From contig JAGFNK010000192.1 in the NCBI GenBank assembly GCA_025769875.1, forward strand, positions 1 to 64,000: DNA of 64,000 nucleotides, in the 5' to 3' direction. The notes below the pieces were generated by a model that made no database searches, was not told the DNA's origin, and saw nothing but the letters and a program-made list of their open reading frames with translations. This document shows, one piece after another, positions 431 to 27,492 of the stretch (the stretch's first letter is position 1; each line of letters begins with the position of its first letter). Both the position numbers and the translations under genes were made by a program. The DNA comes from Russula earlei (taxonomy: Eukaryota; Basidiomycota; Agaricomycetes; Russulales; Russulaceae).

Positions 431-688
431 TATGCAACAGTTTCTAAGAGTTGGTGCTGCTGTTTCGGGTTCTTGGTGGCTGGGTGACCATGTGGCTGCC
501 ACATGATGGTTACCCAATTGGGAAATGGGTGCCTGGTTGTGTTATAGTGCCTTTGCAATAGCAATATCTTGTACCGCAGGAGGGGTAGTCCAGAAAATGG
601 AAGGGAGTTGGCAATGCAAAGTGAGAGAGGTCTCTCTTGAGTGAAATGGGACAATCTACGGCCAGGGCCTGGCCTTGGTTCATAACAG

Positions 689-1489
689 TCAGATGGGGAA
701 ACAGAAAGAGTCAACCAAGAACTAGAACATTATTTGAGAATCTTCTGTAACCACCAACAGGATAACTGGGCCGAACTAGTCCCATTCATGGAGTTTGCTC
801 ATAATGCATGCACCCATAGCACGACCCACAAAGCCCCCTTTGAAATATGGTATGGCTTCAACCCAACGTTTGCCCCCCCTTTTAGTTTCAACACCAAGTT
901 CCCTTCTTTCCTGGAACGTCTGCAACAACTAGATCTACTTAGAGAGGAGGTCGCAGCCTCCCTCCGGAATGCCACAGCACTGATGGGACAGCCCAGCTCC
1001 CACTTCCCCAAGTACCAGTTTAAGACAGGAGACTTAGTCTGGCTGGAAGCCACTAATCTGAGGACAACACACCCAAAAGCCAAGATAGCCCCTTGATGAT
1101 ATGGACCCTTCAAGGTTGTCACCTCATACCCAGTCAATATATGCCTAGAACTACCAAAGACATGGAGGATACACCCAGTCTTTCATAACTCCCTGATCAA
1201 ACCATACAAAGAGACCACTGCCCACAGTCCTAACTTCAAACAACCTCCCCCTACTATAGTGGAAGGGGAGGAACAGTATGAAGTGGACAAAGTCCTAGCG
1301 TCCAGACATTCCCCTAACCGTAGAGGCATTCAATACCTAGTACAATGGAAAGGGTACCCCACGGCAGAGAACATTTGGGAGCCCGTGTCCAACCTAATCA
1401 AAGCCAAAGAGGCTGTAAAGGCCTTTCACCAACAGTACCCAACAATGCCCAAGCCTAATAACATAGTTGCAGGAGCAACTAGGTCATAA
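689..1489 (+). pseudogene. Ty3/gypsy integrase C-terminal part with chromodomain (relic)
   Basis: The reading frame opens with a typical integrase core tail (SDGETERVNQELEHY), followed by FAHNACTHSTTHKAPFEIW and the linker YGPFKV. It ends in a chromodomain at 1,259-1,489 with YLVQWKGYP and NIWEP, the methyl-lysine-reading fold that chromoviruses use to target heterochromatin. The frame is interrupted by two consecutive TGA codons at 1,094-1,099, exactly where relatives carry Arg-Arg before YGPF; this fits CGA-to-TGA change. Everything upstream (protease, RT, RNase H, most of integrase) is missing. The 3' LTR follows directly. This is a dead fragment of a Metaviridae-type fungal retrotransposon. 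Confidence 0.85.
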
Positions 1490-1501
1490 AGAGGGGATGA
1501 A

Positions 1502-2790: not shown

Positions 2791-2819
2791 TGGCCTGAGA
2801 ACATGTGCACCAGCAACCT

Positions 2820-4768: not shown

Positions 4769-4841
4769 GGCATTTTGTTACGCAATTTGGAAGCTGGTGG
4801 GAGTTCATGATGTCAGGGATGACCAGGTCTCATAATCTGTT

Positions 4842-4990
4842 GAAGCTATAGAATAAGAGCTCAGTCTTGTGTGTAAAAGACTGTATTCAGGTTAGTATGC
4901 TAAGCTATAGAATAAGAGCTATGTACAATATTAGCTATAAAGGGAGCTATAAAGGAATGTTGTACTGACCTGTCTTGTGTGTAAAAGACT
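4842..4990. repeat. Short direct repeats
   Basis: The word aagctatagaataagagct occurs at about 4,842 and again near 4,900. The word cttgtgtgtaaaagactg occurs near 4,865 and again near 4,977. The block reads as a partial duplication, possibly the remains of a copia LTR flanking the gag relic. No element ends could be fixed. Confidence 0.5.
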
Positions 4991-5009
4991 GAGGGAAAAT
5001 GAACAATAA

Positions 5010-5340
5010 CTAAATTCAAATTATTTACATGTATGGTCTGGGTTGTCTGTTCACGCAGCACTTAGTGGCTGCATGTCCAACAGTTGCTATGAAAATATGC
5101 TTTAATTTCATTGATGAAGTCCTCTGCTTGACTTTGATCCCCATCAAATGTGGCTGGCAAGTTCCCAAAGGTTTCAATGTCGGGGTTGGGTGGCACCACT
5201 TGTTGAGGTTGTTGCATCGCCAGTTGTGGTGCAGGGGGTCCTCCTGGTCCACCTAGTCCTCCTCGTCAAAGTGCATTTTGTAGAGGTTGAAGAGTTTGAG
5301 TTGGGGTGGCACCAATAGGTTGTGCTGCAGCTTGTGGGGC
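5010..5340 (-). pseudogene. Ty3/gypsy gag fragment
   Basis: On the minus strand one frame reads a Pro/Gln-rich stretch followed by LPATFDGDQSQAEDFINEI, which matches the start of fungal gypsy gag proteins (x-F-x-G-x-x-x-x-A-x-x-F-I). The frame ends in a stop soon after (around 5,050) and no pol follows. It shares orientation with the copia relic but belongs to a different element. Confidence 0.6.
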
Positions 5341-5429
5341 TACTGCCGCCTCCAGGGTGGTGACTTGGACTACTTGTGCAGGTGCAGCTGTCATTTGTGA
5401 TAGTCCCAGGTGATGGAGGACAGTGAGAG

Positions 5430-6111
5430 TGTCACATGTTGGTGGATTTCACTCCACCAAAGGCAAAGACACATGAAACACCTTTGTGGTGTGATGCCGC
5501 TATGCCTCCAGACCCAAAAGGGCCCAGAATAGAATGTTTTGATCTCCCCCTTGATGGGGGAAAGTTGTTCTGAGTAACTCTTTGCCTCAATCCAGCATCC
5601 ATCCCGTTTGTTTCCAATCGTGTGTACTAAAAAGTTAAAAAGCTAAAAAGAAGTCTTTTATTTGAATGTCTCAGATATGGGTACTGACAAAAAAGTCTTA
5701 AGGACACTGTGGAGCTCACCAAGAGTGCAAGCTCAACACCATGGTTGAAGGCCACAAAGGCAATATTTACTTATGTGACTCAGAAGAAATTTTATACTAC
5801 ATAGCAAAATTTTATGACTAGTACTTACAGGTATTGTAGCTGTGAAGATGTACTTAAAAAGGCTCAAAGAAAAACAAGCCAAAGGCCAAGAGAGAGTAAT
5901 CTCCTGCTTAGTCCCCTCACACATGCCATTGAGTCCCATTCCTCACTTCCATGTACTGATTGTCATGCCCTCAGACCTTCACCTCAGTGTCATAATCTTC
6001 ACTACGTGTGTGGTTAGATTGGTGGGGATGTGCGGGGCTTCCGCGTTTGGTGAGTATGGTGGTGGGGTGTCTAATAGTGCTGGGACACAGGCGTGTGGAG
6101 AATCTGTTGAT
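5430..6111. other. No gene recognised
   Basis: AT-rich, CpG-poor filler between the gag relic and the left end of the pogo-like transposon. The longest open frames are under 115 codons and resemble nothing known. It is probably further decayed repeat DNA. Confidence 0.5.
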
Positions 6112-6641
6112 CAGTGCCATGTACTATTGCTTACCAAGTGTTTCACCACAGGTAGTACTAGTGTTTCACCACCACACTGATAACACTTACTAAGCCCCAA
6201 AACATCTCCAATCTTCTTCAAATTGATGATCTGAGAGGTTATAAGTATTAGGAACATTCCTACAATTTTTTCCTGATTTGTGATTGAGGTTGAGGTCAGC
6301 AGAAGCTACATTATGAGGAGTGAATCACATATTTTTAACATTGAGACACAAGGAGTGAACTGATCCTTCCTGTTTTTTTTCTCATATCAGCAATATATAT
6401 TTCCTATGGATTGAGAGTGATTGTACCATGACCATAGACCAGTTTGTGGTTTTCCAGCCCACCATGACACTTCCCCACCATAATTTAAGTGCCGCCAAGT
6501 GTGCTATTTTGGGCAAATTCAATCAATCAACATTGAAATGAAAGTTGGTAAATGGGGAGGCAGCATCAGCGAAGGCCAGAAGAGAAAGGTGATTCAAAAC
6601 ACAAACGGACACTGCAAAAGAAGGTCCAGGACATCACAGAT

Positions 6642-8374
6642 TGTCAAGACTCACTGTTGAACAATCCAGTTCAAGAGCAAGGGATAAGTTCAAAGACAAG
6701 TCAATAGACGTCCAAGATGGTGTGGGCAAGAAGTAGAGTCCAAAGCAGTACCAATTACCAAAGAGGTATGGTTACTGGTAGAGTTGAGCAGGTATGCAGG
6801 GAAGAGGCCAGAATGGTCACAAGGGGATGGTCCTTAAAGGAGTATCCCAGGGATAGAGAGTGCCATAAACAAATGGACAGTCTGAAGACTGTCTGCTACT
6901 TTATGAGAGAAAACCCAGCCTCTATGGTGTCACCCTGTTCACATGGACAAAAGGGGTGAGTAGAGGTGTCCACAATATCACATGCACATTGTTGCGCAAG
7001 CAATTCTTGGCACAATTGACATACAGCAAGCCCCACTTAATGGCAACCCTTTTAGCAATACTAAGGACCTTAATAGAAGTATTAGGGTCGACTCTAAGGA
7101 CCCTAATAGAACTAGATAAGGGGCCATATAGGCAACTCTATTCCCTGAACCAAACTACAAGTCCTCAAATGACTGGCCCTAAACTAACTGACAGCAAATG
7201 AATCAGGTGCTTTGCACATGCACTAAAGCAGTGAACACATGGACAGTAAAGGCTCTTACTCATCAAGAGAAGCCTTCTTACTCAGCAGCTTACTGAGCAT
7301 GACTGAGCATGCTCAGTAAGCATACCCCAACTTCTTACTCATCCATCTATTGTGCTTGATAACAAGGTTATGACTTGTTCCCTATTTAGCAGTTCTTTTG
7401 TAGTATATAAGCGCTCAATAAAGTAGCGGACAGTCTTCAGACTGTCCATTTGTTTATGGCACTCTCTATCCCTGGGATACTCCTTTAAGGACTGTCCCCT
7501 TGTGACCATTCTGGCCTCTTCCCTGCATACCTGCTCAACTCTACCAGTAACCATACCTCTTTGGTATTTGGTACTGCTTTGGACTCTACTTCTTGCCCAT
7601 GCCATCTTGGACATCTATTGACTTGTCTTTGAGCTTATCCCTTGCTCTTGAACTGGATTGTTCAACAGTGAGTCTTGACACTTATATACTACAAGAGATC
7701 TGCCTAATAGGGAACAAGTCATAACCTTGTTATCAAGCACAATAGATGGATGAGTAAGAAGTCAGAGTACGCTTACTGAGCATGCTCAGTCATGCTCGGT
7801 AAGCTGCTGAGTAAGAAGGCTTCTACTGATGAGTAAGAGCCTTTATTGTCCACGTGTTCACTGCTCTAGTGCACATGCAAAGCACCTGATTCATTACTGT
7901 TAGTTAGTTTAGGGCCAGTCATTTGAGGACTTGTAGTTTGGTTCAGGGAATAGGGTTGCTTATAAGGTCCCTTATATAGTTCCATTAGGGTCCTTAGAGT
8001 CAACCCTAATACTTCTATTAAGGTCCTTAGTATTGCTTTATAGTTTGTACTATGGTTAGTAGAGTTAGTCTAATAATGCATTGTAGGGTCTTTAGTATCA
8101 TGTTAGTGCCTTTTGTAGAGCACTTAGAGTCGTCCTAAAGGGTCCTTAGAGAGGCTATAATACTGTCATTTATTGCTGAAAGGGTTGCCACTAAGTGGGG
8201 CTTGCTGTATGTCAATTGTGTCGAGAATCACTCATGTGACAATGCGTGCATGATATTGTGGACACCTCTACTCACCCCTTTCGTCCATGTGAACTGGGTA
8301 GCACCATAGAGGCTGGGTTTCCTCTACTAAGGAAGGGTCCTTCAAGGGCCCTCTCCAGGAAATGGTTCATGACA
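6642..8374 (-). repeat. Solo LTR (reversed), split by a second LTR
   Basis: The outer unit is a reverse-oriented copy of the LTR at 1,502-2,464. It starts TGTCA at 6,642 and ends TGACA at 8,374, and is interrupted at about 6,905-7,681. The breakpoint lies between the TATATAAG box and the ataaagtagc word of the LTR. The flanks cagat (6,637-6,641) and caggt (8,375-8,379) look like a 5 bp target duplication with one change, as Ty3 integrases make. No internal retrotransposon sequence accompanies it, so it is a solo LTR left by recombination. It sits inside the pogo-like transposon. Confidence 0.75.
6905..7681 (+). repeat. Forward LTR inserted in the reversed LTR
   Basis: This is a plus-oriented copy of the same LTR family. 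It begins about 55 bp inside the LTR (aacccagcctctatggtg) and runs to the canonical end TGACA at 7,681. The 5' end is therefore missing. It lies inside a reversed copy, which gives inverted arms of up to roughly 700 bp around position 7,681. Confidence 0.75.
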
Positions 8375-8403
8375 CAGGTGGTCACATCAGGCCAGGCAAA
8401 CAG

Positions 8404-10642
8404 TGGATTGCCAGGTTCCTTGCTTGACACCCAAGCATTAAACTTGGGAAGCCCTCAGGCCTTGATCCAAAATGCGCCCAATGTTTCAACCACACAACCA
8501 TCGCAAATCACTTTGCACTTCTTGAAAAGGTTCTTCATGACCTTGATATCCCTTGGGAGAATGTCTGGAACATGGATGAGATGGGTTGTCAGCAGGGAGG
8601 AGGGAGGAAGGTCTCAGCTAAAAAGTACTTTGTGCCACAAAATAAATGACCACATTATCGTCAATGATGTGGGAACCTGGAGCTTGTTACAATCATTGAA
8701 TGCATCAATGCAACAGGAGATGCCATCAAACCAGGGTTTGTGTTCCCTGGAAAGTGGTTTCATAAGGGCTGGCTGGAAGTTGATCCAAAGATCAAGTGAG
8801 TTGAGGCATGACCATTGATGCTTGCACTTGCAACAAAACTCACCATTTCCCATATGCAGTGTTCCGGTATCACCCAATGGCTGGACTGATGAGTTTCTCT
8901 GCACACAATGGTTCAAGAAGTGCTTCATCCCCCAGGAAACAGCAAAGAACATGTCTGGAAAACCAACTCTTCTCATCTTCAATGGGCACAGTTCACACCT
9001 CACAGAGGAAATCCACCAGCTTGCCCTCTCCCACAACATCCATCTTTTCTGCCTCCCTGCCCACACAACTCATCAGCTACAACCCCTTGATGTCAGCATC
9101 TTTGGGCCTCTTGCAACTGCAATGGCACATTGATGTGATCAAGTTCTTCAGGACACTGGGGCTGAAATTCCTATACAAGACTTTGTCAAGGAGTACATGG
9201 TGGCTCATGACAAAGCTTTCAAGCCTGAGACCATCAAGAAGGCTGTTAAAAACAGTGGAATCAGGCCACTCAACCCTGACATCTTTGCTGAGGCAGACTA
9301 TGCACAAAGTAGAGTCTCATCAACCCAGGCCCACACTCCCTTGACTTATCCCCAGGCATTATTTGGTTACCAGCCTTACACATGCCTTCCTTGTGATGAT
9401 GACAACCTCCCTGATGGGGATCCCTGTGACAGGGAGAATACAGATGGTGAAGGCTATGGAGATGGTGACGGTGATGGGGGTGACAATGGCAATGGCACTG
9501 GCAACAGTGCTGACACTGACAATGGTGCTGGCAACAGTGCTGATGCTGACAATGGCACTGGCAATGGCAATGGCAGTGAAGGTGGCATGGATGAGGACAA
9601 TCAGATTATTGCAGCTACCAATTACTCAAATGTAGCATTACATGCCAGCAGCTCAATTCATCACCAACAAACACCTCAGAGAGCACCCATTGAACTCCCT
9701 GCTATTGCAGTTGGGAACCTTCACCAGTGACAAGACCCAGAATGCTTCAAGCTGGATCCAGAACTCACTCAGCCCCAACAGCTTTCTTATGCTATGGTAG
9801 AGATACAAAGGCTTTCTGAACGAATGTGAGACATTGAGAACAAACCCAATGAGACAATGACACACTGTGCCATGGCAGTTGGAGAGATCACCAATCTGAA
9901 GGTAATTATAAACACAAAAAAACAGAGGAAAACACAAAGCACAACAGTCACCTTAAACTCACACTGGATCACAAGTGGAGCAGGCTTGGTGGAGTTCAAC
10001 CAGCAAATTGTGACTCAAAAGGACAAGAAGGAGAAGCTTGCTGAGGCAAAGCAGAAGTGGGAGGCAGTGGTGGCTACCAAGCAAGCTGAGAGGGATGCGA
10101 GAGGTCTGACATCAGCATTTTGAGGATCACTCACTCCCAAAACCAAAGACAACCTTATGGAGATCATCATGGCACTTGTGATACCAATGGAGGCTGGGAA
10201 GAAGTTCAAAAAGGAAGAGCTCATTGAGATTATTCAAACACATATGAACAAACATCTCAAGCTCAAGGACAATCCACACTTCACCAGCTTGTTTGGTGGT
10301 CATCAATGACAAGGAAGCGCTGACAACAAAAACCTTCCCCCACTGGTTGCAAACACCCATGTGGCCAGCATGCCATCTGCACATGCCAACATGCATCATT
10401 GACATCCGAGTCAGTCCAGATCCACAGTGCTTTCAATGATGACATCTCAACCATTGATCCCCAACTCTCATGTCAACTTCACAACTCTCCATGGCCCCTC
10501 CACATCTTCCCATCCTTTCACCCCTCTGTCTGCCCCTCATTCATTCCCTCTACCTCATGGAGCATACCATTCACACCATAATTCTGTACATTCCTATAAT
10601 TTACCTCAATATCCTTTCTTTAATAATGGTAATCCTTTCTAA
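8404..10642 (+). pseudogene. DDE_1 (pogo/Tigger-like) transposase, inactivated
   Basis: Translating through stops gives a recognisable transposase: LGKPSGLDP, then WNMDEMG (first catalytic Asp, about 8,570), CINATGDAIKPGFVFPGKW, NGWTDEF, TLLIFNGHSSH (second catalytic position, Asp replaced by Asn at 8,981) and HQLQPLDVSIFGPL (third Asp). Downstream come a Gly/Asp/Asn-rich stretch (about 9,430-9,590), a charged coiled segment (about 10,015-10,110) and a natural TAA end at 10,640-10,642. Bases 8,404-8,811 read in one frame and about 8,850 onward in another, so there is one frameshift. Eleven premature stops occur (8,425, 8,647, 8,665, 8,797, 8,809, 9,131, 9,728, 9,827, 10,121, 10,307, 10,400), all TGA. 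The N-terminal part lies before or within the LTR insertion and is not clear. Confidence 0.85.
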
Positions 10643-11449
10643 TTGTTAAATAGAACCTTTATTAGTTGTGAATAGTCAAGCTTTTAAATACTTAATGTGT
10701 TCTGTTGCAACATGCTCGAAAATGCACTTCAGCTTGTCAGATGCCAACATTGGATCACAGATTTTGGACATTCAAAAGTGTTACTTTTGCATGACATGGT
10801 GGTGAAACACTAGGTACTTTTTGATGGGGGCTCATCATTGCTTCATCCTCACTTTTCATTGAGATAATTAGATTTTCTGGTAGCCATGAAGCTTATCTTT
10901 TGAACCATGCATGCCATCAGTATAATTTTTGTAGTCAATGTAGTGTAATTTAGTGATCAGTAAATCATGGTGAAACACTCATTAAGCAATAGTAGTTCAG
11001 ACAGGCACCCTTATTTGGACAGTCACACATGTCATGGGCTTGTTTGTAACTCCACCAAGTCAAGATGTAACTCCACTTGGCAAGTGCTAAATGTGTGTGT
11101 GTGCAATGCCCCTACCACCCCTGATCTTGCTGTGGGGAATCTGCACTTATCTCAGAGAGTTGATGTTGGCCACCTTTCTTTCCCTCAATGTGCCCACAAT
11201 GGCAATGAGCACAGTCATGGCTACAGCCCTGGTCATGGGAGTGCAGCACCTTTACTCAAGCTCAATGAGACTGAAGTGCTTCTGCACCATGCACCAACTC
11301 CACTTTGGTGTGTCTGTGGACACATGAGTGAGAAAGAGTGGGGCTGTTGGACCAGTAAGTGGATGTCAACCAAGGGACTAGAGGTGAGAGAAAGAAAGGG
11401 AGAGAGCCAGTATTGTGTGCAGTCATTTGGATTCAGGCAAAGGCAGACA

Positions 11450-11800
11450 GATGAGAGGGGAGAAGGAAAATATTCTTATTCTGAACTGTTTTACTACAGA
11501 GTAGCTAAGTGTTTTATGTACAGGAATGAAGAACAAAGGGAAGGGAAGTGATGAAAGGGAATTTGAAAGGGAATTTGAGGCTGGCCAAGGTGGTCAAGGT
11601 GGTGGCAAAGGACCTGCAACACAATCATGTTGAGTGGGCTGTGGTGTGCATGCATAGTCAGTGGCAAAGGCTGGGCTGGACAAAGTGGCAAGGGCTTGGA
11701 GAGGCAGTCAAGATCTTGTCATTGGGCATGAGGTGGTAGCATGGGCATGCAGTCAGTGGCAAAGGATGAAAGCAATGGCACATCACATCCATCACAGTTC
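11450..11800 (+). repeat. CpG-depleted copy of the core-family 5' segment
   Basis: From tattctgaactgttttactacagagtagctaa the sequence parallels 15,598-15,900 for about 300 bp, including ttgtgg/ctgtgg, tgcatgc and ggcaaaggatgaaag. Where the copy at 15,598 has CG, this one mostly has TG or CA. It is an older, mutated copy in the same orientation, without the flanking inverted repeats. Confidence 0.65.
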
Positions 11801-15139: not shown

Positions 15140-15548
15140 TTATTGCCATTTTCAGCGCACTTGGCGGAGCTTGAATTCCACCCAAATCAGCGCAGAAACC
15201 CCCTCAAACATGCGGGATGAATATCTCCCTCAAAACAGCTTCAATTCATATGAAATTTATTGTCCCTGAATTACCTGAATGAGGACTAGGCAGCCCCATT
15301 GTTTTCATGAGATGAGTGAGAATTGGTGGAGCTGGACTCAAGCCACCTCCACATGTGTATTAGATGAATTACAACTCAAAATCATGGTCTATATCTATTA
15401 TTTTTCCCTCATGTTGTACCCATGGGCTGTCTTGAGGCAGCCCCATAGTGTTTTTGACTCAAGTGTTGTGGTGTGCAACATTGTTTCCAGTGCAATTGGA
15501 GTCGTGGCCAGCCACTCATCACCCCTCTCGCCTCTCGATTCTGACCAT
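15140..15548 (+). repeat. Left terminal inverted repeat
   Basis: Matches the reverse complement of 17,650-18,060 over its whole length, with roughly 20-25 mismatches and one small indel by eye. The most conserved part is 15,315-15,485. Homology stops at ctgaccat (15,548). Confidence 0.85.
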
Positions 15549-15597
15549 CCTTCTTGTTTTTCACAGACAGAGAGGAGTGGGTTGCAAAGAGGGGTCC

Positions 15598-16312
15598 TAT
15601 TCTGAACTCTTTCTACTACAGAGTAGCTAGGGTGTTTTTATATACAGGAGAGAGGTACTAGAGATGAATGGCATGAAAGTGAATCAAGACTGGTTGAGAC
15701 GGTCGAGGCGGTTGTGAAAGGCTTGAGACGCGAACGCATCTAGTGTGCCGAGGCATGCATGCGCGCATGGTCGGTGGTGAGGGCTGAGCGATGCGATCGA
15801 GGTCTTGATGTCACAAGCAAGATGGCTTGTGGTGTGCGGTCGGTGGACTGCCTGGAACGAGAGGGAGGTGGCAAGGGATGAAAGGGAGCTGAGGTGTCAG
15901 TCTCATGTCGTGTCGTGTCGCGTTTTTGCATGTGATTTTGAGGACAGCCATAATCTTCCTTACACCTCCCGGGGGCTTGAAACTTTGACCATCCTTGGTC
16001 AAGCGTCTGAATGCGAGTGTTTTGAGCCTTTCACGCCTGAATTGAGGTGGTGGTCATGGCTGCTTGTGCTGCGGAAGACACGAAGGCGGCGATCAGCAAT
16101 GGCGATGATGGAAGAGGCGAGGGCAATGGGAAACGGAGGCGATGGAGACGAGGGCGGCGGTGACGAGATGGCGGCTGCATGGTGGTGGTGTTGTCTTATG
16201 GTGGTGGCGGCGTGGTCATCTCCATTGCAGGTGGTGGCAGCAGGCATGGACGAGGAGCAAAGGCGTAGGCGGTGAGCTTGAGTTCGTAGATAGAGACGTA
16301 GGTGACGAGGAC
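15598..16312 (+). other. Core, 5' segment (no gene recognised)
   Basis: The first 300 bp recur at 11,450-11,800. The rest becomes progressively GC-rich and includes runs of ggtgg/ggcgg words. Open frames exist in several registers on both strands because stops are scarce in this composition; none resembles a known protein. Confidence 0.4.
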
Positions 16313-17632
16313 TCAAGAAAGAGGATGCGTGGGGCGGCTTGTGCGGGGGTGGGATCTGTCATCTTGCGGCGGTGGTGGCGGGGTCGTCTCCACTGCAGGT
16401 GTCAGCAGCAGACGTGGGCAAGAGTGCGCGAACGGATGGGGAGGCGATGTGGGAGGCGGCGTGTGGTGTGCTGTTGGCGTTGGCGACTGCTTCTCCTGTG
16501 GCGGCGGCTTCTGCTCCTGTTGTGGCGTGTTGTGGCTAAGTTTGTGGCCGAGGCCTTCTTGGTCTTCTGGGGTGGTGCTGGTGGCGAGGGGTTGCGACAG
16601 TGCGGCGGTGCTGGTGTCGCGCGAAACTACTAAAGCGGCGGCTGAGACTGAGAAGACTGAGGCTGAGACTGAGAAGACTGAGGCTGAGACTGAGAAGGTG
16701 GCGGCAGACTGAGCTGGTGCGACGGTGGAGGCGGACGGGGCGGAGGCAATGACTGAGGGCGACGCAGGGGCGATGGCAGCTGTGGCTGACAAGGGCGTGG
16801 CGGCGGTGGCTTGTGAGACGGTGGTGGAGACAGCGGCGTGTGGCGCTAAGACGTCGGTGGCCGAGGCTGAGGCTACGGTGGCGGCTGACGAGACTAAGGC
16901 GGCTGGCAAGGCTAAGAGCATGGTGGCAGCAGTTGACTGATCTGAAGCTGGGGCGATGGAGATGGCTGGCAAAACTAGGGGTGCGGTGGCGGCAGCTGAG
17001 ACTGAGAAGGCTGAGGCTGAGGGCAGGGTGGAGATGGTGGTGGCTGGCGATGCTGGTGCTATGACGGACTGGGCTGAACTGACAAGTACGGGCAAGGCTA
17101 AGACGGAGACTGATGCGAAGTTGGCAGCTGGCACGACTGAGGCTACTGTGGCGACAGACAAGGCGATGGACAAGACTGAGGGCGACAAGACAACTGAGGG
17201 CGCGGAAGCGGATGAGACAAAGGTGGGGGTGGCAGACGAGGCTGCAAGGGCTGAAGTGGCGGGCGGCGCTAAAATGTCGGTGGGCGAGGTTGAGATGGTG
17301 GTTGTGCATGGAGCTGAGACAGTGGCCATAGCAGGCGACACTGAGGGCGCGGGAGCTGGTTGGGCTAAGATGGGGACAGTGGCAATAGGCGATGTCACAG
17401 CTGAGGCTACGGTGGCAGGGACAGACAAGGTGGCGATGATGGCGAATGCGGGTGATGCTGGGACGGCGAGGGCAGGTGGAGCCGAGGCGATGATGGCTGG
17501 TGAGTCGAGGATGGCGGCAGTGAACGAGGTGACGGGAACGGCGGACGAGGTGGGAACTGCAGGGATGATGGGCAAGGCAGGTGAGGCGGAGGTGATGGTG
17601 CACGATGTAGGGACGGAGGCTGGAGCGGGCAT
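16313..17632 (-). CDS. Hypothetical low-complexity Ala/Ser/Pro/Thr/Val-rich ORF in the core
   Basis: An uninterrupted 439-codon frame with ATG. The first 330 residues are almost only A, S, T, P, V, I and L, built from degenerate units such as SVSASVF, which is exact in tandem near the end (DNA 16,640-16,697). The C-terminal 90 residues are different (DTSTAA, TTPEDQEGLG, then Pro/His-rich). The latter part is conserved in the copy at 2,465-2,790, which might argue for coding. Against this, the opposite strand and another frame are also open over 250-355 codons, there is no signal or domain, and no intron pattern is visible. It could be a captured gene fragment or a non-coding GC-rich satellite. 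Function unknown. Confidence 0.3.
   Translation of the reverse strand: MPAPASVPTSCTITSASPALPIIPAVPTSSAVPVTSFTAAILDSPAIIASAPPALAVPASPAFAIIATLSVPATVASAVTSPIATVPILAQPAPAPSVSPAMATVSAPCTTTISTSPTDILAPPATSALAASSATPTFVSSASAPSVVLSPSVLSIALSVATVASVVPAANFASVSVLALPVLVSSAQSVIAPASPATTISTLPSASAFSVSAAATAPLVLPAISIAPASDQSTAATMLLALPAALVSSAATVASASATDVLAPHAAVSTTVSQATAATPLSATAAIAPASPSVIASAPSASTVAPAQSAATFSVSASVFSVSASVFSVSAAALVVSRDTSTAALSQPLATSTTPEDQEGLGHKLSHNTPQQEQKPPPQEKQSPTPTAHHTPPPTSPPHPFAHSCPRLLLTPAVETTPPPPPQDDRSHPRTSRPTHPLS
16640..16697. repeat. 21 bp tandem repeat
   Basis: The unit gctgagactgagaagactga repeats in register about two and a half times. Its words return near 16,995-17,020. It underlies the SVSASVF heptapeptide repeats of the minus-strand frame. 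Confidence 0.8.
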
Positions 17633-17649
17633 GGGCGCAGGGTATGTGT

Positions 17650-18060
17650 ATGGTCAGAATGGAGAGGTAAGAGGGGCAATGAGTGGCTGGCCGTCACTCC
17701 GATCACACTGAAAACAATGTTGCACACCACAACACTTGAGTCAAAAACACTATGGGGCTGCCTCAAGACAGCCCATGGGTACAACATGAGGGAAAAATAA
17801 TAGATATAGACCATGATTTTGAGTTGTAATTCATCTAATACACATGTGGAGGTGGCTTGAGTCCAGCTCCACCAATTCTCACTCAAATATCATGAAAACA
17901 ATGAGGCTGCCTAGCCCTCATTCAGGCGATTCAGGGACAATAAATTTCATATGAATTGAAGCTGTTTTGAGGGAGATATTCATCCCGCATGTCTGAGGGG
18001 GTTTCTGCGCCGATTTGGGTGGAATTCAAGCTCCGCCAAGTGCACTGAAAACGGCAATAA
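17650..18060 (-). repeat. Right terminal inverted repeat
   Basis: The inverted partner of 15,140-15,548. Each arm contains a matching open frame of about 80 codons (start near 15,312 on plus, 17,886 on minus). This follows from the repeat itself and is not taken as a gene. Confidence 0.85.
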
Positions 18061-20051
18061 AACAGTTCTGGATATAGACAAAAGGGTGAAACTGTGTGAC
18101 AGTGTGTACTCTGACACCCATCTGGTTTCAAAGTCTGCCCCTCAGCTTTTTTTTTTTTTGGATAGTGCTTTATTAGGTAGTTACAGGTGTCTGCTGCTCA
18201 GCTATGCATCACATTTGAATGCAACACTGCCAAAGCAGACCAGTTGTATGAGTCAGCATGACAATCTGATGAAAGTCTTGAAACTCCCAATTTTTGGACT
18301 TGCACAATCAGCTTTCTTCTGACACAACCACCCATCCATTTTATACCAAAGTGATGCTTCAGGGGGCTAGTTCATATATTATCACATTGATTCCAAAAGA
18401 CCAATCATAAAAATGTGTTGTTGATGCTTTTCTATTTGTGATTTAGTAAAAGTTTTGAAACTCCCCACTCATGATAGAATAAAGACTTTATAAAGCTAAA
18501 AAATATTTATGTGTTTTTCCTGATGTGAACAGCAGCAGAGGAAATTTCTTGTATAGGATAGGATGGCCGCGTAAACAAAGACAAGACATGCTATTTTATC
18601 CTGCTCGACTAGAAGAATGTTGTTGGGCCGATGCCTCCAGGCTGGGTGTACTTACGCCGCGGCGTCCGATGAGTTTACCCGTGACGTGCCTCTCTTCAAC
18701 CATGCCTGTTTGCTTCCTGCCCTTCTCCCTTCCGTTCGTGAAAAGGCTCGGCCAAAGCGTCACCTATGACCTCTCCATCTCGTTTGAAATTGAGCAAGCT
18801 CTACGAAAACAATCGCACAATAGACCACGCGAACCATGGTGTACGCCAAAGATGGCGATACCTCGTACTTAGACCGCCATCCCATCGCCTCGTGAGCACC
18901 TATGCATGCCATTGGCGGAAATGCTGGCTTATCCACCTCCCCTTCCTATTATATTTGTTTGCCCTCCGGCACCGTGATCGCATCCGTCAGATCCACCTTG
19001 ACATGCATATTCTGAACCTGCAGGAAATCACGGTGACGATGGATTTCCAACGCTCGAATCCCCGTATACGGGCCTTTAACCAACCCCGAAATGGGACCTG
19101 GGTCACCCCCACAGCACTTCATGCCGTCACGCTGTCAAACTTTGGCTTTCCGATAAGAGCTCCTTTATTGACGACTTCACCCTCGTCCTTGTTTTTTCCC
19201 CAATCGTGACGTTTAGAGGCAGCATGTTGGGATACGTCGACGCCGATCGTGCCACATGTGACGCTTCCCGATCTTGGTTGGCTTGACTTTGAATGTGAAA
19301 GTGCTCAATTAAAAGCGCTTCCTCCCCTTCACCCCAGACCATCGCCTTATCTCTCGCCCTCCATGGTTCAGTCGACGACGAAGGGGGCCCGGCCTGCCAC
19401 CCTGGGCCGAAGGAGCTCAAATATTTTCGGACAACGGCGACTCTTGATGCAAGCCGACACGTCCAAGTTCGTGCCATTCGTCGACGCTGTCGCAAAAACG
19501 CAGGCCTGCCTGCAGCCCCCGACCCGATTGACGCCTGTGCATGCTGAATGTGTTTTTTTCCTCAGGAACGAGAGAACTCGTGACCAGCCCGGCCTTCGTT
19601 GAGCGTGCGGGCGCTCTTGTTTGAACTTTGTCAGTGGAAGGACTTCTTCGTGTAGCATCGGATATAGGCGCAGACAAGCCAGATCGATGCAGTATTCCAA
19701 GATCCAGAGGGTACATTCAACGGATGCGGCGGCACGTATCATCCCCGTCGCTGGGCGGTAGTCCACACCACCGTTCGTTTCGTTAACGCTCGCGACGCAT
19801 GACATGATGGCACTGGCGATGAATGAAACGAGATCATGATTGATGAGTAACTGGTTCAGGCGATTGCATTGATCGCCGCGTCCTATCCCCGTAACAGCCG
19901 TGAATACGTTTCAAAAGACTCTGAAAATATTGAAAATGAGAGACTGCCGTATATTTATATTTGCGAATTTCGTGATGAAAAAAAAAGGGAGAGTGATAAT
20001 GGTGGTGGTAGATATATCCTACAACAGCGACACATCCCAGCGTCCAACATC
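18061..20051. other. Transition from repeat DNA to gene-rich DNA; no gene recognised
   Basis: Bases 18,061-18,530 are AT-rich with a T11 run at 18,150. From about 18,540 CpG content returns to host level. Open frames of 115-147 codons at 18,525-19,209 (+) and 19,127-19,805 (-) overlap each other and resemble no family; they may be gene debris. Nothing here can be tied to the terpene synthase downstream. Confidence 0.45.
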
Positions 20052-21341
20052 TCATGCCGCCTTTGAGCACTCCCGAGAGACGAGGTCGACGATCCTGGTC
20101 GCCTTCACCAGCCCGCCGTTATCGCCGAAATACCTCGTGGTCATGAAGCTCCAGTGCAACGAACCGACGATCCACTCCTGCAGGCCGTTCACGTACAGCT
20201 TGACGTCCTCGTCGACGCGGTCTCCCCACGAGGGGACCCGTTCCCGATTGCGGACGAACGCGTCGATCGTCTGCTTGCACATCTCGCCGATGCGATCCAC
20301 GGCCTGCTGAAGGCCGAGCCCGTCGTGGATCATGAAGACGCAGACCATGTTGTGCGTGTCGCCGCGAGACTGCTCGACGTTGTACGAGAAAAGGTCCTGG
20401 GCGGGTTTCCCTTTTGCGTCAGCAGGGTTGCCGGTGGGGGGCGAGAGATGGTGGGGAAAGGGGAGAAACGCTCACGTTGGACCACGTTACGAGGTCGTTG
20501 GCGCCCTGATTGAGCGCCGCGATCACGGGGTGTTCGATAACGGCATCGGGGAGCTCCAGATCAAGCGAGTATTCGATGAGGTCGAACACGGGCTTGCATC
20601 CGGAGGTATCCCGCCTCATGTCGATGTAGGTCTCGAGATCAGAGACGATCCCGTCCGCGCGGCAGAGCGCTTGCTGTTGAACGGCCTGGAAAAACATCTG
20701 CATGTGGGACTTGAACCGCTGTTGGACCGCCGGGGCACAGTCGCGAATGCAACGCGACCAGAAGCTGGGTGAGACGCGCGCCCCGCGCGATGAGCCTCTG
20801 TGTAAAACAAACGCGTGCGTGGTGAAGACCGCACTCACTCTCGCGCAAGCTTGGCCGCGTTGTTCTCTTGGATCCCACCTCGTTGGCCGCGCACGGGGCG
20901 GTAGTCGTCTGGCCACTCGAACGCGTTCATGACCCAATTCGCAAGGCCCTCGGCGTCCCGGGCCAGAAAGCCATCGGAAACGTCGTCCAGGTGAAAGAGA
21001 TAGTTCATAAAGTCGCTCACGACGCGGAGGCGCGGCGACGTGCAGTTGTTGTAGCAGTACGCGGTGAGTTCACCGGCTTGCAAGCCACGCATGGCGGCCA
21101 CCTTGTCCTGTGAAAAGTGCGGAGAAAAGGATAGTATCCAGTCGAGAGAGTCTGCGGCGATAGCGTCGCCATCATCGTGGTACGTGAGAGAGAAGGAACA
21201 ATGAGAGACGAGGTCCGGGAGGACGAAAAAGCTGGGTTCGAGGACCGTCGGGGTAGGTGAGAGAGCACGGACGAAGCTGAGAGGTGAATCGGGGGGAGTA
21301 GACGAGGGCGATAGTGTCGGTGAACTGTTGGGCGAAGACAT
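20052..21341 (-). CDS. Sesquiterpene synthase (class I terpene cyclase)
   Basis: Three exons (21,341-20,839; 20,764-20,476; 20,396-20,052) with GT-AG introns of 74 and 79 bp give 378 residues, normal for fungal sesquiterpene synthases. The aspartate-rich motif reads HLDDVSDG. The NSE triad NDLFSYNVEQ is completed exactly across the second splice junction, and the C-terminal RY pair occurs as TTRYFG. The family ionises farnesyl diphosphate with Mg2+ and cyclises it in the cytosol; the product cannot be told from sequence. The start at 21,341 (MSSPNSSPTLSP) gives a Ser/Pro-rich leader before FVLPDLVSHCSF; an inner start is possible. The first exon junction restores LARDFWSR. No P450 or other tailoring gene is adjacent. 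The gene lies at the border of the transposon-rich block. Confidence 0.92.
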
Positions 21342-22961
21342 GCCGGCGTAGTTGAGATCGAACGAACGACAACTTGAAGGTGAATCGAATGAGTGCGGAA
21401 TATCGCAAAGCAGGGCCCTCGCAGAGCTGCACAGGCTATCGAGTCTGTACGACATGACCAGACCTTTTATCCTGTTCCTTGGTAGAGGCCTCGAGTCGGT
21501 CAAGATGCTCCGTGCGAACGCGGACGAGTTACAGGTTCCGAGAAGCAAATATTCTTGTTGATGGTCAGGTCTCGAGAAATCCGCATAGAGATAGTTAATG
21601 AATCGCGGAGGGGGTCAAGCACGTCGAGCCGTGAAACAGATTTCAGTGGAGCTTCTCGATCCAGCTAAGTGGCTGACGGTTAGGAAGTGGCACGGCAGTC
21701 AGGACTAGAACCAATAATAGATGACCCGAGATTCCCGCCGTTGCCTTTCTTGCGACTGCGTTCGCAGCGCCACAACAGCAGGCATTCAAGGCTGGTGGAC
21801 GGGGTGGGTATGGATCCTCCTGAATGAAAAGTAAGGCGTCGTGTGACGACAAACGATGACACAGCGCGGGGTAATACACGTTGGACGTGCACCCCGATTA
21901 CGGATATTTGCAGAGCCACGCAGGTGGGTTCCGGAGTCTCTGGGCAATGAATAAGTCGGAGATCGAGAGAAAAATCGTGCACTCCACACTCCTCGAAAGA
22001 GATTGTTGGAGACTTGAACTTGATGATACGTAACTCATGTCAGGCGAACGTTTTGACGTCCGCCACAAAGGGAGGGGGGGGGCGTTGAAACACTCTTGGA
22101 CATGTGTGGGACGTATTTCGAAAGGTGAGCCATCAACCTATGGAACTAGGAGATGTGTAGGGGTCGGTGTAAAGGCAGGGAAGCAGGAACAGAAGACGGT
22201 TGAATAGTTGTTATGTAGCCGGGCCGGCATTCCGCTGCTGATAACCCTCAGTGGATTGCATCCGGTTTTTCGGCGATTGATAGACAGGTACCTCGAGTAT
22301 TCCCTAGTCGAGCTGAATACATTCCCCTCTTGGGAGTACTTGCTCACGCAATGCCAAAGGGGGAGAACGTGCCACCACGGTGTTTGGCAACGAACGAGCG
22401 GTAGACCGACCGTCTTCTCTGTTTACTTCTTCTAGAGATAAACCATGGAAGAGGTGGCGTTCCGCGGACACCGGGGGACCTTTCCAGCTTAGCGTGATTG
22501 ATGAAAGCGACCAAGGGCCTGAATCAACAGGCCGTCGAGCTCCTCTCTCAGCGCTCAGGCATAGACGTAGTCAACGGGGCGGACGAGACAAGTGGAATGT
22601 CACTTTCGCTCTGCCAGTTCGGAGGAAGCCGGCGGTGGAATTGACGGAGACTCACACGTGTGGCAGGTTCCACGAAGAATCGACAGGCATGTGACGCCGA
22701 GATGTGAGGGCCAAGCAAGGTGGAGCGCCTTGAAGCTACGTTCTCAAAGAAACGAGATGAGGACAGCAAACGAGTCCAGGAAGGACGAGACGGCGTCACC
22801 GAGTGTAGAAAATGCTGTTTGCACGGATTCGGGGAGTTAAGAATATCTCGGGGATTATGACAAAGTATTTACTGCTGAGTGTAAGGTATACGATCTTTCA
22901 GGGAAGCTGCACAGGGTATGAGGTGAGCTGGGAAACCGAGGCGCCGCTGCCTGTCACGGAG
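21342..22961. other. Intergenic, no gene recognised
   Basis: About 1.6 kb between two minus-strand genes. Only short overlapping frames (the longest about 105 codons) without recognisable domains. It probably holds the terpene synthase promoter (just above 21,341) and the 3' end of the F-box gene. No repeats were noted. Confidence 0.5.
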
Positions 22962-25087
22962 TTACAACGATACAAAGGAAGTGTCCATGCCATACCCAAA
23001 GTCCCAGATACAGATCCGCTACGTCCAGAAAAAGAGCCCGTGAATATCGGGAAGGTTGAAAGGACACACGTTACTTACCTGATCCTCTCCACACGACACG
23101 ACCTGTGGTATCCATTAGCCGCAGCATAGGAGGGGAAATATGGCCGCACCCACTTTTGTACAATCAAAACCCACAGAAAATATGCGGCCAATGTGCCCTC
23201 CCACGAGGTCGGTAACAAGGCGTCCGGTTTTGCGATCCCACACTTTGACACTAAAATCATAGCTACCGCTGACGACGAAATTGGCACTCAATGCGACATT
23301 GCGAACCAGGTCACTGTGTGCACACTGCTGACGGGACTTGCGCGGCCTCTCGCTCGAGGTTGCTGTGTTCGTCGTAGGATCGACAATGCCTACGTTGACC
23401 CCGCAATTGTGACAGACCGCAAGCGTGGAATTTTCTTCGCAGGAATCCTGGTCCAGAAACGGTGCCACAGGCAACGGCACTGCCGCTTGTACGTCGAATT
23501 CAGACGATGTGGACCAGCCAAGCGTGGACTCGAGGTTGAAGAGCCTGATATGTTTGTCCGAGGAGCCCGAAAGTACGATGGGGAAATCCAGATCGATGGA
23601 TGCAATACTACCGAGAAGAGCACATCAGAAGCACGTCAGATAGGTAGACGCTATATCGGGCATCGGGTGAGAAATGAAATGGTGAGGGGACTTACCCCCT
23701 GCTGTGGTGATTCTCGAAAGTGCGTAGAAGAGCTCCTGTATTGGCATCCCAGAGCCTCAAAGAGCGGTCACCTGACGCAGAGACAATGTGTGTGGGGGAG
23801 ACGGAAAGTGCGTTGACCGCGGCACGATGACCAGTCATGATGTGCAGTGGGTCAAGATCTGGGAAAAGGTAGGTTCGAACGGTACGGTCTCGGAGCAGGA
23901 CATCAGGCGCAGCAATGAGATTTCCGGAAAAACTCACACACCTTTTGAACATGATACCAAGCGCGCGTCGTCGAAACGAACACATAGGACGCTGTCCTCG
24001 TGATCGTCGATGACCTTTACCACCCTGTTCTGCACCAGGTCCCATACAACGACGTTGCTGTCGCTCCCTGCGCTGGCCAGATAGTCGCCGTGAACGCATA
24101 TACTCAAAACGCTCCCTTCATGCACGCCTTGGATGGTGCGGAGTACAGCTCCGGTCGTAAGGTCCCATTCCTTGATCGTGCGATCCTTGGACCCTGTAAA
24201 CAGGACCTGATTGCCAGTTCCTAGGTATGTGTAGAGCTGGAGGCAATATATCGTGTTGGCGTGGGAACCAGGAGTTCCTCGTGATAGCAGAGTGGAGAGA
24301 CGATAGGAGCCCGAGAGGAAGCGGTGTTGCAAACGAGTGCGGGTGAGATGAAGAAGCTTGTAATTTGGACGCTGGTGCTGAGCAGATTGCGTTGCAGAGG
24401 CCGAAGGAGAAGGGAGGCGCGCAGCCAGCTTGCGAGCGCCAATGCGACCGCAGGAACCCGTGCGACGGGCAGGGCCCGTTGATGACTGGTACCGAGTTAC
24501 GAACCCCTGGAGACTTGGAGCTGCCGTGGACCATTCCTCCCAGGGATCGTCCGATGCGAAGCCAGAGTCTTCGACGATGCGCGGGTACATGTCAGGTGGC
24601 ATTTCTATTTCCTCGTCGCCCATTCCCTCGTCATCGGTGTCGTGCTGCACAGATTGGGAGGAAGGGTATTGGAGATACGGCCGCGAAGGGGGGTTCTTCC
24701 AGTACCACCCCTTGGTCGTGCATAGTCGTTTCCAGAGGGTGTAGTCGTCAGCAAGGGTGCGCCAGCGTCGACTGACCAAGCCGCATTGGAGGAGCGTCTT
24801 TGAAGGGAGATAGGAGAAGATGTGCAAAGCGAGCTCTGTGGGAAGGAGCTGTTGTTGTCGAGTTGGTTAGAGGGAAAGAAGGATAAGACGAGGAGCGAGG
24901 ACGAACGCCGACGACATCCAGCTGAAGGAGAGGGACGATCCTCTTCTGGATGTTAGCGAGAGATGACCTTGGAAGGGAAGCCAACAAGGCGTAGACGAGA
25001 TCTTTCGCACGAGGTTCTCAGTTCTCAGCATCAAGCTCTACTGAATCGGAAGCGCGTACCTTCACGTTCCTGGATTGATTCTTCCAT
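22962..25087 (-). CDS. F-box/WD40 protein, SCF ubiquitin-ligase substrate adaptor
   Basis: Seven exons (25,087-25,060; 25,016-24,907; 24,848-23,942; 23,888-23,696; 23,607-23,154; 23,102-23,079; 23,018-22,962) splice in frame to 590 residues. A short leader (PRAKDLVYALLASLPRSS) is followed by an F-box at about residues 47-90 (LPTELALHIFSYLPSKTLLQ, then VSRRWRTLADD), which would bind Skp1. The C-terminal half is a WD40 propeller with repeat ends such as DRTIKEWDL, SNVVVWDL, DRSLRLWD, DFSVKVWD and ICIWDF. The layout matches Cdc4/Met30/Pop1-type adaptors that recruit phosphorylated substrates for ubiquitination; which paralogue is not decided. Exon 6 is only 24 nt (VVSCGEDQ). Confidence 0.9.
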
Positions 25088-25193
25088 GTCCACTGCAACA
25101 ACGACGACAAGAGCAAATGTGCCACTCAATTAAGCTAAAACATCATTCCCACGACCGACCAATGTAAATAAATAAATTACATATACACCCAAT

Positions 25194-25213
25194 GTCACGT
25201 CACGTCACGTCAC
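25194..25213. repeat. (ACGTC)n microsatellite
   Basis: Four consecutive tcacg/acgtc units overlap the stop end of the SH3-protein gene. Confidence 0.8.
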
Positions 25214-26433
25214 CCCCATGTGGCAACCGAACGCAAAGAGCTCGCTCGTCGCGTGGAGCGCCTGTCCCCAGTGCGCGAAACTCCTGCGAACTGCCCCCCG
25301 CCGCCTTCGAGGCACTCCAGCGGCACCATGCCTTGCTCCCCAGTACTATTTCTACATAGTGCCCACCCGTCGTCAAACTCCGTTTGGATGTATAGCGTCT
25401 CCCCGGGCGTGATTGGCAGCTCGTCCGGAAGCTGAGGGACGAATCTCACCCGGACGGTCGTCGGCACGCCGAATGTGTCGACAGAGGCTATCGACGGTAC
25501 GTTTGGTGAGTGCGTATCGGATACGGGGGAAACTGGGGGATTGTTGTAAGACTGCGGAGGCGCAGTCGGAGACACGGGGCTGTACGGCAGTGGCGGCTTG
25601 CGCGCGATGGTTCGAACAGGTACTGGGGCTCCCACGACACTGTCTCCCGGGCCCGCCGGTGGCGGCTGACTTGGCCCCGCGGCCGCTGCATCTGAGGCGA
25701 CCGAGTGAACGTGGCCGACGCCCTTCTCCAGCGAGGAGTCAGAGTCGGGACGTGGTGTCAGGCCGGTAGTCCATGTGACGCGGCTTGCAACGCGCTTCTG
25801 GATCCGGCGGTTCCTGACAACGAAGAATGACGCTGCACACAACACGAACAGGACGAGTAGGACTATGGCCGCGATGGCCCCTCCCGAGAGACCGGAGTGT
25901 GTCCCCGACCCGCCGGTCGTACCAGCCAGAAAGGTGTCCGCGGGTGAGGTCGTCGCAGGCATCGTTGCGCTCCCGAAAGGAATGTTTGGGCTGTCTGGGG
26001 AGGATGCTCTAGGACTTGGGATGAGCGGGGTGCTGGTAGAGGAGGTAGGCGATGGTGATGGTGGTGGTGATGGTGGTGGTAAAGATGATGACAATACAAT
26101 GCTCGAAGAGCTTGTGATCGCCGGAAAGGTGGCGTTAAGTACAGGATCAGGCAGGGGCAATTCCTCTGGTGAAACAATCAGCGTTGAGACCTGCACAACG
26201 GTGGTCTGGATGGGCGCGCTCCCCGTGCTCAAGGCCGGTGCATTAGTAAGGGAATCGGTGGGCACCGGGGAGCTAATGGTCAGGGGAGCCAAACCACCCT
26301 GGTTATCAAACGCGTCGTAGTACAGGTTTGGGCGCGCCGGTCCCGCGCCTGGCGAGTAGCGCAGTTCATCGGTCGGGCGTGGCCCCGGGTTCAATGGGAG
26401 GACCTGCACAGCAGGATGAAAGGGAGGAGACAT
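25210..26433 (-). CDS. Single-pass membrane protein with C-terminal SH3 domain
   Basis: One open frame of 407 residues. Residues 1-180 are Ser/Thr/Pro-rich and probably extracellular. A membrane helix follows near residue 185-208 (AIAAIVLLVLFVLCAASFFVV), then a basic stop-transfer stretch (RNRRIQKR). After a disordered Pro-rich cytosolic part, an SH3 domain occupies about residues 325-390 (VRVRFVPQLPDELPITPGE, GWALCRN, GMVPLECL). The design recalls cortical or fusion-related membrane SH3 proteins (Fus1/Sho1-like topology), but no orthologue is claimed. A true N-terminus with a signal peptide may lie upstream: a possible acceptor (ctgtgcag) precedes VLPLNPG at about 26,403, so ATG 26,433 is tentative. 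Confidence 0.75.
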   Translation of the reverse strand: MSPPFHPAVQVLPLNPGPRPTDELRYSPGAGPARPNLYYDAFDNQGGLAPLTISSPVPTDSLTNAPALSTGSAPIQTTVVQVSTLIVSPEELPLPDPVLNATFPAITSSSSIVLSSSLPPPSPPPSPSPTSSTSTPLIPSPRASSPDSPNIPFGSATMPATTSPADTFLAGTTGGSGTHSGLSGGAIAAIVLLVLFVLCAASFFVVRNRRIQKRVASRVTWTTGLTPRPDSDSSLEKGVGHVHSVASDAAAAGPSQPPPAGPGDSVVGAPVPVRTIARKPPLPYSPVSPTAPPQSYNNPPVSPVSDTHSPNVPSIASVDTFGVPTTVRVRFVPQLPDELPITPGETLYIQTEFDDGWALCRNSTGEQGMVPLECLEGGGGQFAGVSRTGDRRSTRRASSLRSVATWG

Positions 26434-27492
26434 GAGAAAAGGAGTGAAGAGGGCCAGAGGGCCAGAAGTTGGGGGAGAGCGAGAGTGACCGCGTTATACG
26501 CAGCTGGTCTGCCCAGCCCCACTTCGCTTTCAAGTCCCGTCCCGTGAACAAGGATGGGTGCGTGCGAGAAGGCCGCTGAAGAATGAACAAATGGGCATTT
26601 TGAATCTCCCGCCTTGCGACGGTCGTGGGGCGGCAACGCTCTCGATAGCAACACACCGTTTAACGGACAACGCCTCGACAATGAGAAAGGGCCATGGAGG
26701 CGCTTAATTTCCTTTTACGGAAATTGGACCCTGTGCTGGGACTGCGGGTGATCGGGTCCAGCAATATACAACAACCTACAAGTAGCACTGACAATATACC
26801 TACCCGCTTCAATTCTCTGCTCGGTGCCTCTCGGTTCGTGAAATAATGGACGTGGGTCGAGTGGTGTACGTGCACATTCCAACAGGGCCATCTCGGGTTC
26901 GGGTCCACCGAACGAATGTACCAATTAGGACAATACAATTGAATAGGCACGCTCGCTATCAAGAAAGCGATGCAATGCAAGGTATAATGAGGTATGTATG
27001 GATTGATCGAAGTAAGAATGTATGTAGGCTATTGCGAATAGTCGGATCTTTGACATGCCGTGCACAGTAGTTGATGCGCTGAAGTGTGATGCGCTGATAC
27101 CACCGATATTAGATTCTCGGCCGGAGAGCCAAGACAGCCATTGACTATTGGATGCCCTCCAGGACTCGCATGAGGGAATAATCCCACCGGGTTCAGGAAG
27201 GACCTTGGCAACTTTCACATCACACACATGTATGGTACCTGGTCTAGGACATCTCCGCAATCATGATAGTACCTTTATAAAGCGGGTGCTGTCTAGTCTG
27301 GCTCTCGGTACAGCAAATAACAGTCCATTAGAGATTTGGAGGGGTAAAGTATTTGGCGTACGACACCAATGTGGGTAGAGGGTCGTTGTGCATGACGTAC
27401 TATAAATATCACGACGGTCTTCTCGAACGGTGATACGTCGACATGCGCCTGCAGCCTGGCCTCTTGACAGCCCGTCTTAATTGCTTCCGGAC
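26434..27492. other. Intergenic, no gene recognised
   Basis: Contains the upstream region of the SH3 gene and the 3' flank of FAN1. Short overlapping frames only. A hydrophobic minus-strand frame near 26,440-26,500 could be a missing signal-peptide exon of the SH3 gene, but it could not be spliced convincingly. Confidence 0.45.

What the first reader, a model, noticed from the sequence alone, without database searches (positions are those of the whole stretch)
8404..10642. Eleven premature stops in one transposase, all TGA
Seen: read through, the pogo-like transposase has eleven in-frame stops, and every one is TGA; the only TAA is the natural end. Several sit where Arg is expected. The second catalytic Asp became Asn at 8,981 in a ttcaatg context, which fits the opposite-strand change of ttcgatg. 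The gypsy integrase adds two tandem TGA at 1,094-1,099 at an Arg-Arg position. Inference: decay was driven almost purely by C-to-T at CpG (methylation-linked deamination), not by ascomycete-style RIP at CpA, which would also have made TAA and TAG from Gln codons.
Basis: partly seen in the sequence, partly recalled or inferred. Interest (0 to 1): 0.75.

Follow-up and report, generated by a model that had tools for sequence, protein, structure and literature searches.

The report
Transposon decaying only at CpG sites
In a Russula-like mushroom genome, dead mobile elements are being worn away almost only at CG letter pairs while neighbouring genes are spared, a known kind of decay that this locus lets one measure by comparing its two parental copies.

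Summary
The pogo-like transposase has nine, not eleven, premature stops, all TGA. The two at 8797 and 8809 lie in a likely 64-base intron (8796-8859). Decay at CpG and not CpA is strongly supported. At the nine sites three related copies read only TGA, CGA or CAA, the states open to a former CGA; 8 of 9 show CGA or CAA. Against copy L010, 62 dinucleotides are TG in one and CA in the other, against at most 3 of any other double transition. An allelic contig (C792) gives a cleaner test. CpG differ at 96 of 225 on the repeat side and 6 of 872 on the gene side, with similar non-CpG divergence (32/9,078, 22/9,356). In one young repeat CpG loss is about 94 times that of gene CpG (range 43-255). No strand runs, no TCG bias. 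DNMT5-like and DNMT1-like genes exist; methylation itself is inferred. CpG-biased decay with TGA stops is published for Agaricomycetes (PMC4457147, PMC6980582, PMC4014442), so this is a new member of a known kind; the two-haplotype measurement is the useful extra.

The parts
6122..10994 (+). pogo-like DNA transposon: TA at 6122-6123 and 10993-10994 as target-site duplication, terminal inverted repeats of about 25 bp from 6124 and from 10992
   Evidence: ends shared by other genomic copies and terminal sequences printed
6645..8372 (.). repeat nested inside the transposon, made of inverted sub-repeats; copy L010 lacks it; a related copy lies at 1502-2464
8404..8795 (+). transposase, first exon part (frame 0), three in-frame TGA (8425, 8647, 8665)
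8796..8859 (+). likely 64-base intron (GTGAGT...CAG) holding the TGA at 8797 and 8809
8860..10642 (+). transposase, second exon part (frame 1) with DDE_1 domain (PF03184, E 9e-20), six in-frame TGA, TAA end at 10640
8981..8983 (+). codon at the catalytic Asp position, now Asn, at a lost CpG
1094..1099 (+). tandem TGA in a gypsy-type integrase, followed by a chromodomain in 1100-1447
15140..18060 (.). younger high-copy element with about 410-bp inverted ends (15140-15548 and 17650-18060) and a GC-rich core 15600-17650 that keeps most CpG and differs strongly between haplotypes at CpG
18475..18500 (.). border between CpG-poor repeats and the gene side; most genomic copies of the last repeat stop at about 18475-18481
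18500..29615 (.). gene-side control aligned to the allelic contig C792: 6 of 872 CpG differ (counted from 18480)

Best explanation
A dead pogo-like transposon in a Russulaceae-like fungus lies in a block of repeats that is, or was, methylated at CpG. Each methylated C can turn to T on either strand, independently and at a roughly steady pace, so CGA codons become TGA (or CAA), and other Arg and Asp codons change through the opposite strand. Shown here: changes are concentrated at CpG, fall on both strands, are confined to the repeat side, and are recent as well as old. Inferred: that 5-methylcytosine laid down by the DNMT5-like or DNMT1-like enzymes is the mutable base, and that the deamination is not catalysed.
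For: 62 TG/CA opposite-strand pairs against L010 and at most 3 of any other double transition; in all pairs of the element ends 642 against 56 for the next commonest. At the nine coding stop sites only TGA, CGA or CAA; CGA or CAA at 8 of 9. Nine TGA against 49 untouched CAA/CAG/TGG codons. Between haplotypes CpG differ at 96 of 225 on the repeat side and 6 of 872 on the gene side, Fisher 1.5e-66, with non-CpG divergence 0.35% and 0.24%. Repeat-side CpA differences are not raised: 5 of 1,666 against 5 of 1,449 on the gene side. In the young core 33 CpG are lost in the window only, 43 in C792 only and 7 on opposite strands, without strand runs (z -0.84, -0.86). CpG loss grows with age: depth 0.2-0.7 at 0.1-1.3% non-CpG divergence, median 2.1 at 2.7%, 5.3 at 4.1%. 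On C273 a methyltransferase matching PDB 7r76 (E 8e-74; the entry names it Rad8, and that it is Cryptococcus DNMT5 is recalled); DNMT1 relatives on C27 and C34.
Against: No methylation data. The excess over gene CpG (about 94, range 43-255) is well above the roughly tenfold usually quoted for mammalian methylated CpG (recalled). Core paralogue pairs give lower ratios of CpG loss to other divergence (42-68, one 247, 14 pairs) than the haplotype core (136) or the transposase pair (130), so the clock is rough. Other contexts are not wholly flat: repeat-side CpC differs at 9 of 1,033 against 4 of 1,557 on the gene side, and over the element ends CpA differs in 6.6% of comparisons against 2.5% CpC, 4.9% CpT and 70% CpG. 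Stops inside the listed DDE_1 matches of the genome are 74 TGA, 27 TAA and 10 TAG (copies not independent, introns not removed). Gene-side CpG differences crowd towards the repeats (5 of 177 within about 2.1 kb, 1 of 695 beyond, P 0.0016), which could be leakage; all differences are denser there too (15/2,096 and 13/9,004).
Confidence: 0.78

Rival explanations
1. An active, repeat-directed mutator of the RIP kind that targets CpG in Basidiomycota (a methyltransferase-linked deaminating process, perhaps at meiosis), not chemical decay.
For: Restricted to the repeat side with a sharp border; about 94-fold excess over gene CpG; a hint of leakage next to the border; RIP or a RIP-like process is proposed in PMC4014442, PMC4457147 and PMC6980582.
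Against: No strand runs as one-strand bursts would leave (that expectation is recalled): with single outliers of either sign (WIN -2.22, L023 +2.37) and means 0.26 and 0.17. No TCG preference. Losses have accrued separately in both haplotypes, and older pairs have lost more than younger ones.
Confidence: 0.18
2. TGA is read as an amino acid in this element (recoding), so these are not stops.
For: Every internal stop is TGA.
Against: Relatives have CGA or CAA at 8 of the 9 coding sites, the partners of a lost CpG; the catalytic Asp is lost too; the same CpG loss runs through other repeats.
Confidence: 0.01
3. The haplotype CpG differences are base-calling errors at methylated CpG in the assembly.
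For: Some long-read chemistries miscall methylated C as T (recalled); the sequencing technology is unknown.
Against: Context-driven errors should hit both haplotypes and the paralogues alike, yet losses differ between them. The haplotypes share 46 same-strand losses against 7 opposite-strand ones, the five other pairs examined 5-14 against 1-6: descent explains this, shared context does not. Older pairs carry far deeper loss.
Confidence: 0.03

Closest known systems
CpG hypermutation of repeats in Agaricomycetes (Ganoderma sinense PMC4457147; Tricholoma matsutake PMC6980582; Rhizoctonia solani AG8 PMC4014442)
   Same: C-to-T at CpG in repeats. PMC4457147 states that CpG change makes TGA while CpA change makes TAG and TAA, and that almost all affected elements were methylated; PMC4014442 calls TGA the primary nonsense product.
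   Different: Between haplotypes here CpA shows no excess (CpA is second-most preferred in G. sinense) and genes are spared (affected in R. solani AG8); the rate is measured between two haplotypes of one locus.
CpG depletion of rust-fungus repeats (Austropuccinia psidii, PMC8063080)
   Same: Older repeats lose CpG; the authors favour decay of 5mC over RIP.
   Different: A different subphylum; here allelic and opposite-strand evidence is added.
Ascomycete RIP (Neurospora type)
   Same: C-to-T in repeats that kills transposons.
   Different: CpA target and RID enzyme there; here CpG, both strands, no rise of TpA.
Dim2-linked mutation of repeats in Zymoseptoria tritici (PMC8497519)
   Same: A methyltransferase goes with raised C-to-T change in repeats (about 15-fold total base-substitution rate) in a mutation-accumulation experiment.
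   Different: CpA context there.
pogo/Tigger transposons of Tc1/mariner type
   Same: DDE_1 domain, short inverted ends, TA duplication.
   Different: This copy is broken by nine stops, a lost catalytic Asp and a nested insertion.

Membership tests
CpG methylation-coupled decay of repeats | C-to-T excess at CpG | tested here: met
CpG methylation-coupled decay of repeats | both strands hit, independently | tested here: met
   62 opposite-strand pairs; no strand runs
CpG methylation-coupled decay of repeats | confined to repeats | tested here: met
   96 of 225 against 6 of 872; border at the repeat end; one locus only
CpG methylation-coupled decay of repeats | cytosine methyltransferase genes present | tested here: met
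   DNMT5-like and DNMT1-like matches
CpG methylation-coupled decay of repeats | 5mC present on these repeats | not testable with these tools
   no methylation data
Ascomycete RIP | CpA preference | tested here: not met
   CpA 21 of 874 against CpG 25 of 31
Ascomycete RIP | RID/Masc1 methyltransferase | tested here: inconclusive
   PF00145 matches lie on three contigs and look DNMT5-like or DNMT1-like; no tree was built and introns can hide genes
Pucciniomycotina RIP-like process | TpCpG preference | tested here: not met
pogo/Tc1-mariner transposon | DDE_1 catalytic domain | tested here: met
pogo/Tc1-mariner transposon | short inverted ends and TA duplication | tested here: met
pogo/Tc1-mariner transposon | N-terminal CENP-B-type DNA-binding domain | not tested
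   the 5' part is interrupted by the nested repeat; relatives such as P0024 and P0026 carry PF03221

The most novel reading that the evidence does not exclude
The near hundredfold excess of CpG loss in repeats over gene CpG of the same two haplotypes reflects an active CpG mutator in Agaricomycetes, or the loss of thymine-mismatch repair at methylated CpG, making CpG decay a standing defence in place of RIP.
Probability: 0.2. Interest if true: 0.65.

Novelty: new member of a known kind. Interest (0 to 1): 0.38.

Why it matters
Whether CpG mutation of basidiomycete repeats is RIP or simple decay of methylcytosine is unsettled: PMC6980582 leaves it open, and PMC12543289 finds RIP-like enrichment only in ascomycetes (passages read). 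A dikaryon's two haplotypes give an internal clock. Genes and non-CpG sites set the time, repeat CpG show the excess, and strand order separates bursts from slow decay. The same comparison can be made genome-wide wherever both haplotypes are assembled.

Tried and rejected
My own first reading, that the change of frame in the transposase was a frameshift, was wrong: copies L010 and L012 have no indel there against the window and the stretch fits a 64-base intron. Recoding of TGA: rejected. TCG target as in Pucciniomycotina: rejected. Loss of uracil or thymine glycosylase as the cause: Pfam PF03167 found nothing, but the NCBIfam ung model found a gene exon by exon on C4. The Pfam miss was therefore false, and the mug miss (only 2 of 14 controls rang) shows nothing. 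TET/JBP: no match, but no control rang. In one search the WIN-L012 pair gave no value because L012 keeps no CpG there, and of the 91 pairs of terminal regions only the 45 with over 600 sites and a defined value were used. Of the 120 listed relatives, 43 were used. Papers: passages only were read of PMC4352252, PMC4014442, PMC12543289, PMC9624357 (nothing taken from it), PMC8063080, PMC6980582, PMC4457147 and PMC8497519. Horns 2012 (PMC3318451) is not held and was seen only as cited.

Full report
What is there. The window is the first 64 kb of a 90,876-base contig (C192) in a 66.6-Mb, 1,374-contig genome. A host protein at 25213-26433 matches Russula dissimulans best among named hits (57% over 99%), then other Russula, Lactifluus and Lactarius, so the organism is Russulaceae-like. 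Bases 1-18,480 have CpG observed/expected mostly 0-0.4 in 500-base steps, except the GC-rich core of a young element at about 15,600-17,650; 18,001-64,000 has 1.03. The parts of that block that were compared are repeats (1502-2464, 6122-10994, much of 10996-14000, 15140-18480) and 1100-1447 holds a chromodomain; about 2,500-6,100 and 14,000-15,140 were not tested. The finding lies in a pogo-like transposon at 6122-10994 with TA duplications and short inverted ends, a DDE_1 domain and a nested 1.7-kb repeat.

The stops. Eleven TGA and no TAA or TAG interrupt the two frames, but two of them (8797, 8809) sit in a likely intron. The stretch 8796-8859 begins GTGAGT and ends CAG, in the window and in copies L010 and L012. 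Neither L010 nor L012 has an indel against the window at 8700-8900. Of 81 relatives aligned on both sides, 67 have 1-5 residues between them and the rest range from -32 to 22; about 22 codons would be needed if the stretch were coding. Nine premature stops remain. Beside 9 TGA and 1 CGA stand 49 CAA/CAG/TGG codons that never became stops, P about 8e-10 for equal risk, taking all nine as former CGA. Relatives have Arg as commonest residue at 5 of the nine sites; at three others other residues are commoner and at 10400 Arg is absent.

Copies. At the nine sites L010 reads 5 CAA, 2 CGA, 2 TGA; L011 covers six (6 TGA) and L012 four (3 TGA, 1 CAA); no other codon occurs. By site: CGA seen at 2, CAA at 6, only TGA at 1. 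At the two intronic sites L010 and L012 read TGA. CAA is the product of losing the same CpG on the other strand. Window and L010 show 62 TG/CA pairs in 2,519 dinucleotides and every other double transition at most 3; L012 shows 22 against at most 1; L011, the allele of the window copy, shows none, as expected for a recent split. Over the element ends, all pairs of 16 copies give 642 TG/CA and 56 of the next commonest. From such counts the transposase region had about 129 CpG when the window and L010 copies parted, and each now keeps 9. At the codon of the catalytic Asp the four copies show the two opposite-strand products of a lost CpG.

Two haplotypes. A gene stretch (20400-23000) has a second, nearly identical place on contig C792, which aligns over 8910-29614. 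I take it as the other haplotype: 28 differences in 11,080 gene-side bases. CpG differ at 96 of 225 on the repeat side and 6 of 872 on the gene side (Fisher 1.5e-66), while other sites differ at 32/9,078 and 22/9,356. On the gene side CpG are no more mutable than other C (ratio 1.1). In the young core 99 CpG are intact in both, 33 are lost in the window only, 43 in C792 only and 7 on opposite strands, against 8 other differences in 1,686 sites. Loss there is about 94 times that of gene CpG; the range 43-255 reflects Poisson error on the six gene events. The two haplotypes share 46 same-strand losses against 7 opposite-strand ones at sites where another copy keeps CG, so they descend from one insertion; the five other pairs examined show 5-14 against 1-6. 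The low-CpG block ends where the last repeat ends: of the 39 other matches to 18400-19000 (the window and C792 excluded), 37 stop at 18475-18481, one reaches 18487 and one covers 18479-18525 (capped list).

Mechanism. Slow decay and a burst mutator predict different things. Strand runs are absent in the transposase pairs (z 1.11 and -0.56), in 13 copy-by-region tests (means 0.26 and 0.17, single outliers -2.22 and 2.37) and in the young core (-0.84, -0.86). TCG is not favoured. CpG loss rises with other divergence, though not in strict proportion: ratios are 136 for the haplotype core, 180 for other haplotype repeats, 42-68 with one 247 for 14 core pairs, a median of 81 for 45 terminal-region pairs and 130 for the transposase pair. 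Part of the paralogue divergence may have arisen in active source copies (inference). DNMT5-like and DNMT1-like genes are present. I judge methylcytosine decay most likely; the size of the excess and a weak crowding of gene-side CpG changes near the border keep an active process open.

Known or new. PMC4457147 (passages) reports CpG-preferring C-to-T change in Ganoderma repeats, methylation of almost all of them, and TGA against TAA/TAG as the expected stops. PMC6980582, PMC4014442, PMC4352252 and PMC8063080 (passages) report CpG bias in other basidiomycetes. The kind is therefore known. The listings of searches (12 to 20 titles each out of 20 to 140 papers) show no title or abstract start that describes an allelic, gene-controlled rate of this sort in an agaricomycete; that is a limited look at open-licence papers.

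Noticed in passing
window 15140-18060: High-copy element (40 places in a capped list, window and allele included) with about 410-bp inverted ends and a GC-rich core whose open frames look low in complexity; its type was not identified.
   Followed up: partly
window 6642-8374 and 1502-2464; C792 about 1536-2502: Fold-back-like repeat built of inverted blocks. C792 carries one at window position about 10,395 that the window lacks; C792 does not reach back to the one at 6,645.
   Followed up: partly
L019-L021, L024, L025, L062-L064: Shorter relatives that share both ends of the pogo element but carry about 700 bases beside window position 10,537 that the window copy lacks, perhaps a non-autonomous family.
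   Followed up: no
window 18687-20577: Five of the six gene-side CpG differences lie within about 2.1 kb of the repeat border, a hint of spreading or leakage.
   Followed up: partly
L037, L039-L043, L049, L050, L054: Many DDE_1 relatives list one TAA inside the domain match, perhaps an intron or an old shared stop; whether the position is the same was not checked.
   Followed up: no
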